NCBI GenBank assembly: GCA_017527495.1 | Contig: JAFXPY010000025.1 | Coordinates: 1 to 64,000 of the forward strand | Direction of reading: 5' to 3' | DNA: 64,000 nt | Source: Paludibacteraceae bacterium | Lineage (GTDB): Bacteria > Bacteroidota > Bacteroidia > Bacteroidales > Paludibacteraceae | Part shown: piece after piece, positions 759 through 43,809 of the stretch | Numbering within the stretch: the stretch's first letter is position 1 | Layout: each line of letters starts with the position of its first letter | Position numbers and translations under genes: made by a program | Notes under the pieces: generated by a model | Seen by the model: only the letters and a program-made list of their open reading frames with translations | The model's database searches: none | Told to the model about the DNA's origin: nothing

Positions 759-780
759 ATTTTTTAGGAATAAAAATATT

Positions 781-962
781 CAAGTTTCGCAAGTACTATA
801 ACGCAGATTACACGAAAATATTTATCTACTAATTAAACTAATTATTACGAATTTTGCTCAGTCAAAAATTGAAAAAAATTACTATTTCAAGTTTCGCAAG
901 TACTGTAACGCAGATTACACGAAAATATTTATCTACCAATTAAACTAATTATTACGAATTTT
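781..962. repeat. Two 75-bp direct repeats upstream of the recombinase gene
   Basis: Copies at 781-855 and 888-962 differ at two positions only and are separated by 32 bp. Each opens with CAAGTTTCGCAAGTACT and ends with TTATTACGAATTTT. They lie in the 5' leader of the minus-strand recombinase gene. They may be regulatory repeats or crossover sites of the recombinase. Direct rather than inverted orientation would favour deletion or duplication of the intervening DNA. Confidence 0.9.
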
Positions 963-994
963 ATTTGGTCAATAATTATCCAAAATTAAAAATA

Positions 995-39717: not shown

Positions 39718-41070
39718 ATGGCAAAGAACAGCAACCTCGGATTGGCAAAAGCCGCTAAAAATGACGAGTTCTACACCCAGTATGCGGACATTCAGAAAGA
39801 AGTAAACGCATACATTGAATACAACCCCGATGTCTTTCGGGGCAAGACAATCTTGTTGCCTTGCGACGATCCGGAATGGAGCAACTTTACCAAGTTTTTT
39901 GCACAAAACTTTGAGTTCTTCGGTCTGAAGAAACTCATTTCCACTTCATACGCCATCGAAAGCAAGAAATACAAGACCGACTGGCAGCCGACACTCTTTG
40001 AAACAGAGAATCCTCTATACAATGCCGATAAAAGCCGCATCAAAGGCAAAATCTTTACACTTACGCACGATACCAATCAGAGCGGTCGTATTGACATCAA
40101 CGACCTCGAATGGCAATACCTTGAAGGCGACGGCGATTTCCGCAGTGCCGAAGTAACCGCTCTCCGAGACGAAGCGGATATAATTATCACCAACCCGCCG
40201 TTCTCGCTCTTTCGGGAGTTTCTTGCGTGGATACTTGAGGGTACTCCAAAGCAATTCCTTATCATCGGCAATATGAACGCTATTACCTATAAAGAGGTCT
40301 TTCCTCTGATAAAAGAGAATAAAATATGGTTGGGAAAAGGATTTACCAGAAGTTGTGCTCATTTCTTCAGCCCTTTTGAAAGTGATAGTGAATATCTTGA
40401 ACTTGATAGATTCAATAAATTAGGGATTGCTATACCCAAAGGTTTGTATGTTACAAGAGTTGCAGGTATTTGTTGGTTCACCAACCTTGACCACGGTCGC
40501 CGCCACCAACCTTTGCAACTTATGACTATGGCTGACAATATCAAATTCAGCAGACATAAAGAGATAAAAGGTATAGGTTACCAACACTACGACAACTACG
40601 ATGCTATCGAAGTGCCCTATACCGATGCCATACCAAGCGACTATGTGGAGTGTCTTGGAGTACCGATTTCATTCTTGGATAAATACAGCCCCGAGCAGTT
40701 TACTATTATCGGTGCAACAGAAAGTGAAGGCAAAGGCTTTTCAAACGGATTATGGAATCCCGAAAGCGGGATCGCTCAAGCCCTTATTAACGGAGAGCGC
40801 GTATATAAGCGCATCTTCATAAAAGCCAATAGGGGGGGGCTGATAATCAGTGAGTTACGCGAGTATATAATAAATACATACGGCTATAGTCCGGAAGAAG
40901 TTACCATCATCAGCGGCATTATGGGCGTTCCTATTTCGTTCCTTGACAAGTATTGCCCCGAGCAGTTTGAGATAGTGGGGAATGAGTATGATCAAAATAT
41001 TTCTAAAGGTAGGGCATATGCCGATGGTAAAAGAATGTATAGTAGAATATTTATCCGCAAGCGGCAGTAG
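39718..41070 (+). CDS. EcoRI-type adenine-specific DNA methyltransferase with duplicated C-terminal module
   Basis: 450 residues. The N terminus (NDEFYTQYADIQKEVNAYIE), the cofactor-region ILLPCDDPEWSNF and the catalytic IITNPPFSLFREF (NPPF at 159-162) are typical of the M.EcoRI-like adenine methyltransferase family. The C terminus has two copies of a module: GVPISFLDKYSPEQFTIIG to RIFIKANR (314-371) and GVPISFLDKYCPEQFEIVG to RIFIRKRQ (403-450). They are joined through eight consecutive Gs at 40832-40839. Removing or adding one G stops the protein at 374 or 378 residues, right after module 1. It is the probable modification partner of the HNH nuclease at 42643. Normally they might be adjacent; here a transposase gene separates them. 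Confidence 0.88.
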   Translation: MAKNSNLGLAKAAKNDEFYTQYADIQKEVNAYIEYNPDVFRGKTILLPCDDPEWSNFTKFFAQNFEFFGLKKLISTSYAIESKKYKTDWQPTLFETENPLYNADKSRIKGKIFTLTHDTNQSGRIDINDLEWQYLEGDGDFRSAEVTALRDEADIIITNPPFSLFREFLAWILEGTPKQFLIIGNMNAITYKEVFPLIKENKIWLGKGFTRSCAHFFSPFESDSEYLELDRFNKLGIAIPKGLYVTRVAGICWFTNLDHGRRHQPLQLMTMADNIKFSRHKEIKGIGYQHYDNYDAIEVPYTDAIPSDYVECLGVPISFLDKYSPEQFTIIGATESEGKGFSNGLWNPESGIAQALINGERVYKRIFIKANRGGLIISELREYIINTYGYSPEEVTIISGIMGVPISFLDKYCPEQFEIVGNEYDQNISKGRAYADGKRMYSRIFIRKRQ

Positions 41071-41092: not shown

Positions 41093-41175
41093 TTCCGCAG
41101 ATAACATCTGCGGAAGATAGAAACGAGAAGAACCAAAACGTTCAGATAGAATCTGCGCGAAAATAAAAACGAGAA
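41093..41175 (+). repeat. Two REP-like hairpins with ACGAGAA tails, upstream of the transposase gene
   Basis: Hairpin 1: TTCCGCAGAT (41093-41102), loop AAC, ATCTGCGGAA (41106-41115), followed by GATAGAAACGAGAAG. Hairpin 2: CAGAT (41143-41147), loop AGA, ATCTG (41151-41155), followed by CGCGAAAATAAAAACGAGAA. Both have the same order (hairpin, then purine-rich tail ending ACGAGAA) as copies inside and after the RAYT gene. Confidence 0.85.
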
Positions 41176-41187
41176 TATAAGAGCGTT

Positions 41188-42321
41188 ATGTTCACATGGA
41201 AGCGGCATAAAGATATTTTCAAAGGAGAGGGAATTTATCACCTCACTTTTGTTGTCCATAACCGTGTGCCTATATTGGGGACATTGGCGGGAGATGCTTC
41301 CGCTGCGCGGGTAGAACTCTCACCTATCGGATATGATATTTCGCAGAACATACAGCAACTGCCATCATTCTTTCCCGCCGTCAAGGTATGCGCCAAACTG
41401 CTGATGCCCGACCATATACATGTGGTGCTGTGGGTGCAAAAAGAGCACCCCTATTCAATCAAAGAAGTGGGACGCAGCATGCGCCAAGCGTGGCATAAGA
41501 TTATCCTTGCGCATACCCAAGAGCAGGGGGCTGGCGTTTCGATGAATCCGCTGGCTCTCGTTTCTATAAACCCGCAGATTAAATCTGCGGAGGACAATAA
41601 AAACGAGAAAAAAGAGAATGCGGGGGACAATAAAAACGAGAACACTCCGCATCTGCCTTATCGCTTTGAGCCACCGTATATCCGCACTTTGGTTGCGAAG
41701 GGGCAACTGAACCGCATGATTGCTTATATCCACGACAACCCGCGCCGTGCGATGTTGCACAGACTGAACCCCGATTTGTTCCGTTTGCGCAGAGAACTGC
41801 AAGTGGAAGGCCTGACCTTCACCGCCTTGGGTAATCTTTTCTTACTTGACTATCCACAGCGGCAGGCTATTGAGTGTTCGCGCACGGCTCCGGCAGAGCG
41901 GATTGCTGCACAGCAGGCATCTGCCATACAAGCGGCAGAGAAAGGGACGGTTAGTTACAGCGGCGCGGTCAGTGCCGGTGAGAAGCAGATTATACGCGCC
42001 ATCCACGAGGCAGGATGGCCGGTTGTAGTAGTCCTGAACGATGGTTTTCCCGCAGCCGGTTCTGAACATGAGCGTTTCTATAAGCCCGGAGGTGTGTATT
42101 TTGAGGCTTGCGCCGCAGGACGACTTCTGCTGTTAGAGCCTACGGCAGCCACATTGGAGAGCGAGCTGGTCGTAGCCCTGACAGAGCAGGCACTGCGCGA
42201 CAAGGCGGAAGCCAAACATCAAGACTATGCACCCCTGCCACACGCCTCGAAGAGGTGGCGAATGGTGGCAAACAACTGCATTGCGGGGATATTGGCGGAA
42301 GGAGCAAGAGGGCGGCAATAA
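41188..42321 (+). CDS. REP-associated tyrosine transposase (RAYT, Y1/IS200-like) with C-terminal extension
   Basis: 377 residues. The Y1 domain (1-215) has GIYHLTFVVHNRVPIL, the paired histidines in MPDHIHVVLWV (H76, H78) and the catalytic tyrosine in MIAYIHDNPRRAM (Y180). A low-complexity stretch at about 119-153 (SAEDNKNEKKENAGDNKNEN) is encoded by a REP copy lying inside the gene. A further 150 residues follow, with AGEKQIIRAIHEAGWPVVVV and GVYFEACAAGRLLLLEP, reminiscent of the nucleotide-binding tail of some Bacteroidetes RAYTs. The stop codon lies in the loop of a REP hairpin. It appears to have moved in between a methyltransferase and a nuclease gene. Base composition is more GC-rich than the flanks. 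Confidence 0.88.
   Translation: MFTWKRHKDIFKGEGIYHLTFVVHNRVPILGTLAGDASAARVELSPIGYDISQNIQQLPSFFPAVKVCAKLLMPDHIHVVLWVQKEHPYSIKEVGRSMRQAWHKIILAHTQEQGAGVSMNPLALVSINPQIKSAEDNKNEKKENAGDNKNENTPHLPYRFEPPYIRTLVAKGQLNRMIAYIHDNPRRAMLHRLNPDLFRLRRELQVEGLTFTALGNLFLLDYPQRQAIECSRTAPAERIAAQQASAIQAAEKGTVSYSGAVSAGEKQIIRAIHEAGWPVVVVLNDGFPAAGSEHERFYKPGGVYFEACAAGRLLLLEPTAATLESELVVALTEQALRDKAEAKHQDYAPLPHASKRWRMVANNCIAGILAEGARGRQ
41554..41650 (+). repeat. REP-like hairpin inside the RAYT coding sequence
   Basis: CCGCAGAT (41572-41579), loop TAA, ATCTGCGG (41583-41590), then a tail ending AAACGAGAA at 41609. A second tail copy follows (GACAATAAAAACGAGAA, ending 41642). Just before the hairpin, CTCGTTTCTAT is the inverse of the hairpin-1 tail, so the unit is a longer imperfect palindrome. 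The reading frame is kept through it. Confidence 0.85.
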
Positions 42322-42347
42322 AATTGCCGCAAGAATAATAACGAGAA
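42312..42347 (+). repeat. REP-like hairpin spanning the RAYT stop codon
   Basis: GCGGCAAT (42312-42319), loop AAA, ATTGCCGC (42323-42330), then AAGAATAATAACGAGAA. The TAA stop at 42319-42321 falls at the loop. The tail leads straight into the tandem array. Confidence 0.88.
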
Positions 42348-42634
42348 TTAAGAAAAAAAATAGCGAAAATAAGAATAATAACGAGAATTAAGAAAAAAAA
42401 ATAGCGAAAATAAGAATAATAACGAGAAATAAGAAAAAAATAGCGAAAAAGAAGAATAATAACGAGAATTAAGAAAAAAAAATAGCGAAAATAAGAATAA
42501 TAACGAGAAATAAGAAAAAAATAGCGAAAAAGAAGAATAACGAGAATTAAGAAAAAAATAGCGAAAATAAGAAGAATAACGAGAATTAAGAAAAAAAATA
42601 GTGAAAAAGAAGAATAACGAGAAATAAAAAATAA
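42331..42634 (+). repeat. Tandem array of 38-41 bp units, seven full plus one partial
   Basis: Unit starts are 42331, 42371, 42412, 42452, 42493, 42533, 42572 and 42610. Each has the form AAGAATAATAACGAGAA, then TTAAGAAAAAAAATAGCGA and a short AAAAT/AAAAG end. Differences are mostly A-run length and loss of one AAT in the last three units. The unit repeats the REP tail (AATAACGAGAA), so it looks like an amplified tail. It ends 8 bp before the nuclease start and replaces any normal promoter there. It is not a CRISPR array: there are no spacers. Confidence 0.92.
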
Positions 42635-42642
42635 TACCCATT

Positions 42643-43809
42643 ATGGAAGCAATACTCAATATCTACACCGTTGAAGAAATTTGCCGTGGCTTTACCTACA
42701 ATGAAGCCGAAGGCAAAGGTCTGTTCGGACTGTCCGGACGCCTCACTATTCAACCCGAATATCAACGCAACTATCTCTATGCCGAACAAAACGGAGCACG
42801 GGAAATAGCAGTCATTGAAAGCATACTCAATAGTTATCCGATAGGGCTGATTTATTTCAATAAAATCGACGACCAACACCTTGAAGTACTTGACGGTCAG
42901 CAGCGTATTACCTCGCTCGGACGCTTCCTGACAAAGAAATTCGCCGTTCGCGACAAAAACGGTATGGAGCAGTACTTCGACAGCCTGCCGGAAGACAAGC
43001 AAAGCAAAATTCTCAACACCAAACTACTTGTCTATGAGTGTGAAGGAACGGAAAGCGACATCAAAGAATGGTTCAAGACTATAAACATTGCAGGCATACC
43101 GCTTAACGAGCAAGAGGTGCTGAATGCCGTCTACTCTGGCTCGTTTGTAACACGCGCTAAAGAGGAATTTTCCAATTCGCAGAACGCCAATATCAACAAA
43201 TGGTCTGCCTTTATCCGTGGCAATGTTCGCCGACAAGACTATCTGCATACAGCCCTTGAATGGGTAAGCCGTGGCAATGTAAGCGAATATATGTCGCAAC
43301 ACCGCAACGACACCGATATAAAAGAGTTGAAAACATATTTCAATAGCGTCCTTGACTGGGTAAACTCCGTCTTCGAGGTTGTTGAAAAAGAGATGTGCAG
43401 CTTGCCTTGGGGCGAACTATACGAGAAATACCACACCAAACCTTATAACCCGCAGCAAGTCAAAGAAACACAACAGCGACTGTACGAAAATTACTATGTG
43501 AAAAACAAACGCGGCATTTATGAATATATCCTCGGCGGCTGTCAGGACACCAAACTGTTGGAAGTGCGTTGTTTCGATGAGCCTACCAAGAAAAGTGTTT
43601 ATGCCCGCCAGACGGAAGAAGCCAAGAGACATGAGGTTTCCAATTGTCCGCTGTGCGCCATCGGTCATGATGCCAACCATGCGCGTATATGGAAACTGAC
43701 GGAAATGGATGCCGACCATGTAACGGCTTGGTCAAAAGGCGGTGTAACAGACATCACCAACTGTCAAATGCTCTGCCAGGCACATAACCGCGCAAAAGGC
43801 AATAAATAA
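42643..43809 (+). CDS. DUF262 (ParB/GmrSD-N-like) protein with C-terminal HNH nuclease
   Basis: 388 residues. The N-terminal DUF262 domain has QPEYQRNYLY and the VLDGQQRITS motif (D84-R88), known in GmrSD-type modification-dependent nucleases and thought to bind or hydrolyse a nucleotide. The C terminus is a zinc-type HNH domain: CPLC (335-338), DADHVTAWSKGGVTDITN (H359, N373) and LCQAHNRAKG (H381). Together with the EcoRI-type methyltransferase at 39718 it could form a restriction-modification pair; alternatively it attacks modified phage DNA. It has no clear promoter of its own, with the tandem array directly upstream. Confidence 0.9.
   Translation: MEAILNIYTVEEICRGFTYNEAEGKGLFGLSGRLTIQPEYQRNYLYAEQNGAREIAVIESILNSYPIGLIYFNKIDDQHLEVLDGQQRITSLGRFLTKKFAVRDKNGMEQYFDSLPEDKQSKILNTKLLVYECEGTESDIKEWFKTINIAGIPLNEQEVLNAVYSGSFVTRAKEEFSNSQNANINKWSAFIRGNVRRQDYLHTALEWVSRGNVSEYMSQHRNDTDIKELKTYFNSVLDWVNSVFEVVEKEMCSLPWGELYEKYHTKPYNPQQVKETQQRLYENYYVKNKRGIYEYILGGCQDTKLLEVRCFDEPTKKSVYARQTEEAKRHEVSNCPLCAIGHDANHARIWKLTEMDADHVTAWSKGGVTDITNCQMLCQAHNRAKGNK

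What the first reader, a model, noticed from the sequence alone, without database searches (positions are those of the whole stretch)
41093..42347. RAYT gene decorated with its own REP hairpins before, inside and across its stop codon
Four hairpins with the same three-base loop style and an ACGAGAA tail surround the gene. One is in the reading frame and codes a disordered insert at residues 119-153; another holds the stop codon in its loop. RAYTs are known to be linked with REPs, but a REP tolerated within the transposase and at its stop is unusual. It suggests transposition into itself, or control of its own translation.
Basis: partly seen in the sequence, partly recalled or inferred. Interest (0 to 1): 0.7.

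Follow-up and report, generated by a model that had tools for sequence, protein, structure and literature searches.

The report
Transposase gene carrying its own hairpins
A gut-type bacterium has a gene for a DNA-cutting enzyme (a REP-type transposase joined to a DprA-like part) that carries the hairpin DNA signals it probably recognises before, after and inside its own coding sequence; most relatives do the same, and the hairpin is kept as DNA or RNA rather than for the protein it encodes.

Summary
The gene at 41188-42321 (377 aa) is a RAYT/TnpA-REP-like tyrosine nuclease. It carries three strong hairpins (41093-41115; 41572-41590 in frame; 42312-42330 over the stop codon) and one weak one (41145-41157), each followed by an ACGAGAA tail. 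A 40-bp array of the tail follows the gene. The tail occurs nowhere else in the genome above chance, so it is a private signal of this gene. Over 100 homologues, 60 carry a hairpin in the same disordered loop (residues 114-160), at 28 times the shuffled density. In-gene units lie in all three reading frames. They often have a covarying outer stem, and they change by compensated substitutions about ten times more often than expected. So the hairpin is maintained at nucleic-acid level, not merely a recent self-insertion. REPs inside tnpAREP genes were reported in 2018 for GTAG-type subclass 2.4 (Quentin et al., PMC6006769). This group differs: no GTAG foot, a different loop, locus-bound tails, and a C-terminal DprA/ShosA-like domain (Z 11.3) for which I found no published RAYT precedent. 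Best reading: a cognate recognition element kept in cis. Control of translation and exchange of gene halves remain untested.

The parts
41188..42321 (+). RAYT-like gene, 377 aa: HUH/Tyr nuclease core (residues 1-198, H76, H78, Y180) plus C-terminal DprA/ShosA-like domain (199-376)
   Evidence: purifying selection on both domains
41093..41129 (+). 5' unit: 10-bp hairpin TTCCGCAGAT-AAC-ATCTGCGGAA plus tail ATAGAAACGAGAA
   Evidence: z -5.2
41145..41175 (+). second 5' unit, decayed hairpin (5 bp) plus tail ATAAAAACGAGAA; the tail starts 19 nt before the ATG, the same spacing as in L026, L027 and L029
   Evidence: z -0.69
41527..41667 (+). insert, residues 114-160, predicted disordered (pLDDT under 50 at 120-143), between helix alphaC (91-113) and strand beta4 (164-167)
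   Evidence: relaxed selection (omega 0.5-0.6 against three of four relatives)
41556..41609 (+). in-gene unit: inner hairpin CCGCAGAT-TAA-ATCTGCGG (41572-41590) inside an outer stem TCTCGTTT/AAACGAGA
   Evidence: z -4.3
41630..41642 (+). second in-gene tail copy without hairpin
42312..42347 (+). 3' unit: hairpin GCGGCAAT-AAA-ATTGCCGC containing the stop codon 42319-42321, plus tail AATAATAACGAGAA
   Evidence: z -5.2
42331..42631 (+). AT-rich tandem array (period about 40 bp, 7-8 copies), each copy holding ACGAGAA

Best explanation
The gene encodes a single-strand-DNA nuclease of the TnpA-Y1/RAYT kind fused to a DprA-like domain. The hairpin-plus-tail units are its cognate recognition elements. 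Shown here: fold, invariant catalytic residues, clustering of the units at the gene, maintenance of the in-gene hairpin at nucleic-acid level over deep divergence. Inferred: the protein binds the hairpin and tail in single-stranded DNA, as E. coli TnpAREP binds REP, and cuts near the tail; this multiplies units locally (arrays) and lets gene copies recombine. The in-gene unit keeps a matching site physically tied to the recognition half of the enzyme, in a loop where its peptide does no harm.
For: Fold: residues 1-173 match IS608 TnpA (Z 12.6) and E. coli RAYT 4er8 (Z 11.6, alignment range 6-306); 199-376 match ShosA (Z 11.3) and DprA (Z 9.8). H76, H78, Y180 and N184 invariant in 80 homologues; omega 0.04-0.14 in both domains. 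Hairpins per kb in 100 homologues: insert 4.48, rest of gene 0.4-0.63, flanks about 2, shuffles about 0.2; 60 of 100 genes carry one in the insert, 0 of 12 with inserts under 25 aa (p about 1e-43 against the rest of the gene). All three reading frames used. Independent pairs: 9 compensated stem changes against 0.9 expected, 15 broken against 34. Outer stem 6 bp or more in 32% of in-gene units against 4.9% in swapped controls; in a 13-locus clade 64 of 78 Watson-Crick pairs against 33.8 +/- 6.6 when halves are swapped, 0 of 5000. Tail found only at this locus in its genome; same units and arrays in relatives L026, L027 and L029. Within genus g21, 19 of 24 genomes with the gene have CCCGAATNNNATTCGGG sites against 3 of 10 without (p 0.01). 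Mosaic genes: most strong breakpoints (32 of 41 pairs) fall in codon columns 135-179, between the insert and the start of the DprA-like domain.
Against: No biochemistry: binding and cleavage are inferred from relatives (E. coli TnpAREP, PMC8266576). In-gene and flank hairpins match better within a locus than between loci (p 2e-6), but against the nearest relative's flanks the difference is weak (p 0.09), so clade history explains much of it. The compensation test used alignable loci and could reflect replacement by fresh copies rather than selection in place. 40 of 100 homologues have no perfect in-gene hairpin, so it is not essential. Mosaic pairs share events (perhaps six independent ones), and breakpoints lie tens of nt 3' of the hairpin, not at it.
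Confidence: 0.6

Rival explanations
1. Tolerated selfish insert: the in-gene hairpin is a REP copy that survives only because the alphaC-beta4 loop accepts extra residues; repeated insertion or gene conversion renews it, with no function in place.
For: Insert predicted disordered, weakly constrained as protein; genes with short inserts have no hairpin; ordinary RAYTs carry REPs in a different loop; tandem tail arrays grow in frame inside L027.
Against: Units lie at the same position and register across relatives, with compensated changes and a covarying outer stem; this genome has no donor pool of the window's unit.
Confidence: 0.3
2. Autoregulation at RNA level: the protein or the folded mRNA controls its own translation through hairpins near the start, inside the gene and over the stop codon.
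For: Tail sits exactly 19 nt before the ATG in the window, L026, L027 and L029; stop codon lies in a stable hairpin; structure conserved on the coding strand.
Against: Palindromic hairpins look alike on both strands, so nothing separates RNA from DNA; L028 lacks tail and 5' hairpin yet keeps the in-gene one; no expression data.
Confidence: 0.2
3. An IS200-like autonomous element whose ends are the flanking hairpins.
For: Paralogue C13 has the same hairpin-tail unit at both ends; orthologues lie in different contexts (L026, L027 against L028 and the window).
Against: Paralogues within the genome are 33-68% identical over their length (C13 a mosaic of 44% and 80%), not recent copies; no empty site or defined ends were established; L028 and the window share neighbours.
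Confidence: 0.12

Closest known systems
TnpAREP/RAYT subclass 2.4 (Bertels group 4) with in-gene REPs, Quentin et al. 2018 (PMC6006769)
   Same: REP-like hairpins flank the gene and are inserted in frame between the HuH and Tyr motifs, often in double-foot form; same phenomenon seen here in ordinary RAYTs of the phylum.
   Different: No GTAG/CTAC feet in this group (2 of 71 near-matches); insert lies after alphaC, not between beta3 and alphaC; C-terminal DprA-like domain, 377 aa instead of about 194.
TnpAY1 subclass 2.6 (Bertels group 5, Bacteroidetes), Quentin et al. 2018
   Same: Bacteroidetes, atypical non-GTAG hairpins, an insertion between alphaC and beta4.
   Different: That subclass is about 179 aa and its insertion is about 21 aa; in-gene REPs are called unique to subclass 2.4 there, and no DprA-like domain is reported.
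Rickettsia palindromic elements (RPE) and other intragenic REPs (PMC3733652)
   Same: Palindromic repeats tolerated in frame inside coding sequences.
   Different: Those sit in unrelated host genes; here the host is the presumed enzyme of the repeat itself, at a fixed loop.
DprA / ShosA
   Same: Fold of the C-terminal half.
   Different: No sequence-profile match to a DprA family; here it is the C-terminal half of a tyrosine nuclease.

Membership tests
RAYT / TnpAREP (TnpA-Y1 family) | HUH motif and one catalytic tyrosine on a Y1 transposase fold | tested here: met
   Pfam Y1_Tnp in 32 of 80 homologues, NCBIfam REP_Tyr_transpos in 80 of 80 at E up to 0.01, but the window protein scores 24.7 bits against a cut-off of 80
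RAYT / TnpAREP (TnpA-Y1 family) | flanked by REP-like hairpins | tested here: met
RAYT / TnpAREP (TnpA-Y1 family) | cognate REP dispersed in many copies in the genome | tested here: not met
   window tail: 9 of 11 exact sites at this locus, control 2. GCGGCAAT stem type: 16 sites genome-wide, but outside this locus with another tail. So it is filed as RAYT-like in fold and anatomy, not as a REP-spreading RAYT
Subclass 2.4 with in-gene REPs | GT[AG]G foot on the REP | tested here: not met
   2 of 71 in-gene units have a near-match
Subclass 2.4 with in-gene REPs | insert between beta3 and alphaC | tested here: not met
   insert follows alphaC in the model; ordinary RAYTs compared
DprA family | DprA-like Rossmann fold | tested here: met
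   ShosA Z 11.3 over 136 residues, DprA Z 9.8 over 132
DprA family | match to a DprA sequence profile | tested here: inconclusive
   no Pfam DprA hit in 80 members at E up to 0.01
RAYT / TnpAREP (TnpA-Y1 family) | cuts its cognate hairpin as single-stranded DNA | not testable with these tools
   needs purified protein

The most novel reading that the evidence does not exclude
A RAYT-DprA fusion lineage in Bacteroidales in which a compound hairpin (inner stem plus covarying outer stem) inside the coding sequence is a working cis element. It marks the 3' border of an exchangeable recognition half, so the enzyme's own site helps shuffle its recognition and DprA-like halves between gene copies.
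Probability: 0.2. Interest if true: 0.8.

Novelty: new variant of a known kind. Interest (0 to 1): 0.55.

Why it matters
RAYTs are called domesticated transposases, yet what keeps an enzyme matched to its REP is an open question. Here the site is written into the enzyme's gene and evolves as a structure inside a coding sequence, so the match between enzyme and site can be tested directly. The DprA-like half adds a possible link to single-strand DNA handling at forks or during uptake, and gives a Bacteroidales-wide family to test it in.

Tried and rejected
Recent self-transposition of the window's unit: rejected, the same in-gene hairpin is present in relatives with saturated synonymous sites and the unit is not dispersed. 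Peptide-level selection on the insert: disfavoured, hairpins occur in all reading frames and omega is 0.5-0.6 against three of four relatives. Strong claim that in-gene and flanking hairpins co-evolve locus by locus: not upheld against nearest relatives (p 0.09). First compensation count discarded as biased, because both partners had to have perfect hairpins; replaced. Paper searches pairing DprA with RAYT or TnpAREP found nothing; absence from this open-access library does not prove novelty.

Full report
What is there. The window lies in a 2.47-Mb Bacteroidales genome; named relatives of the gene are uncultured Bacteroidales and Paludibacteraceae genomes, at least two of them from roe-deer rumen. 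The gene at 41188-42321 codes 377 residues. No Pfam family matches it alone; NCBIfam's REP-associated tyrosine transposase matches weakly (24.7 bits, cut-off 80). Three strong hairpins and one weak one stand before, in and over the end of the gene, each followed by ACGAGAA, and a 40-bp tandem array of the tail follows. The two neighbours are an EcoRI-type adenine methylase and a GmrSD/HNH-type nuclease gene.

The protein. An AlphaFold2 model built on 80 homologues (pLDDT 89) shows a Y1/HUH nuclease core (IS608 TnpA Z 12.6; E. coli RAYT Z 11.6) followed by a DprA/ShosA-like domain at 199-376 (Z 11.3). H76, H78, Y180 and N184 are invariant. Against four relatives both domains are under strong purifying selection (omega 0.04-0.14), while the insert at 114-160 is relaxed against three of them (0.5-0.6; 0.17 against L028) and predicted disordered. 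A search of 296 genomes of the phylum found only ordinary RAYTs outside the own genome among the listed hits. A search of 393 genomes of the order, at E up to 1e-30, found 18 genomes in 11 genera with a match, nearly all full length. I found no paper that joins RAYT or TnpAREP with DprA.

The hairpins. In the own genome ATARNAACGAGAA has 11 sites, nine of them here; the reversed control has 2. GCNGATNNNATCNGC has six sites, four of them at this gene and the C21 paralogue. The second stem type, GCGGCAATNNNATTGCCGC, has 16 sites (control 0). Those at contigs C33, C42, C55 and C10 form clusters of about 67-bp units with another tail, TATAAAAACAATGTTAGATG, which matches the flanks of paralogue C13. 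So stems can be shared between paralogues while the tail is specific to the locus; the hairpin over the window's stop codon combines the GCGGCAAT stem with the window's tail.

In-gene hairpins are the rule. In 100 homologues, perfect hairpins (arm 7 or more) occur at 4.48 per kb in the insert, 0.40-0.63 in the rest of the gene, about 2 in the flanks, and about 0.2 in shuffles. Sixty genes carry one in the insert; none of the 12 with inserts under 25 residues does. They lie in all three frames and so encode different peptides.

They are kept as nucleic acid. In independent pairs of alignable homologues, 9 stem changes are compensated (0.9 expected) and 15 are broken (34 expected); stems diverge less than flanking insert DNA (0.143 against 0.221). 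In-gene units often have an outer stem made of the tail and its inverse: 32% against 4.9% in swapped controls, while flanking units show no excess (7% against 5%). In a clade of 13 loci the outer stem keeps 64 of 78 Watson-Crick pairs with two to four pair types per position; swapping halves gives 33.8 +/- 6.6 and never reaches the observed value in 5000 trials. This resembles the double-foot REPs that Quentin et al. describe for subclass 2.4. Replacement by fresh copies could produce some of this signal, so selection in place is the likelier reading, not a proven one.

Same phenomenon elsewhere. Quentin et al. 2018 report REPs inserted in frame between the HuH and Tyr motifs as a feature of subclass 2.4. 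Ordinary RAYTs from this phylum show it here too: 3.74 hairpins per kb between HUH and Tyr, several with GTAG...CTAC feet, lying before helix alphaC in nearly all cases inspected. The present group differs in foot, loop, tail and C-terminal domain, so I call it a new variant of a known kind.

Mosaic genes. In pairs of homologues the strongest divergence breaks cluster between the insert and the start of the DprA-like domain (32 of 41 pairs at z 6 or more in codon columns 135-179). Both directions occur: window and L029 are 0.04 apart on the left and 0.23 on the right; several other pairs show the reverse. The core is under stronger selection than the DprA-like domain, so a faster core does not explain left-diverged pairs. 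The pairs share events, and breaks lie tens of nt past the hairpin, so a role of the hairpin in the exchange is only a hypothesis.

Mechanism. Shown: fold, catalytic residues, selection, clustering of units at the gene, structural conservation inside the coding sequence. Inferred: the enzyme binds its hairpin-tail units in single-stranded DNA and cuts near the tail, as TnpAREP enzymes cut REPs (PMC8266576). The in-gene unit then ties a matching site to the recognition half of the gene. Autoregulation remains open: the last 5' tail lies exactly 19 nt before the start codon in the window and three relatives, and the stop codon is in a hairpin.

Noticed in passing
39718-41070 and 42643-43809: The gene sits between an EcoRI-type adenine methylase and a GmrSD/HNH nuclease gene; locus L028 has both neighbours (69% and 80% identity), and L029 and L034 have the methylase nearby.
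   Followed up: partly
L020 (contig C13, 31000-35000): Paralogue C13 is a mosaic: residues 1-107 are 44% and 159-371 80% identical to the window protein, with a 12-residue loop without hairpin and the same hairpin unit on both sides of the gene.
   Followed up: partly
L135-L138 (contigs C33, C42, C55, C10): Clusters of about 67-bp hairpin-tail units (GCGGCAAT stem, tail AACAATGTTAGATG); three of the four lie at or near contig starts.
   Followed up: partly
L027 313-1548: A 24-bp tail unit repeated in frame inside the gene (KNENTGYD-like repeats), with five hairpin units at about 61-bp spacing upstream.
   Followed up: no
window 779-977: Two near-identical 107-bp tandem copies, AT-rich, not examined.
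   Followed up: no
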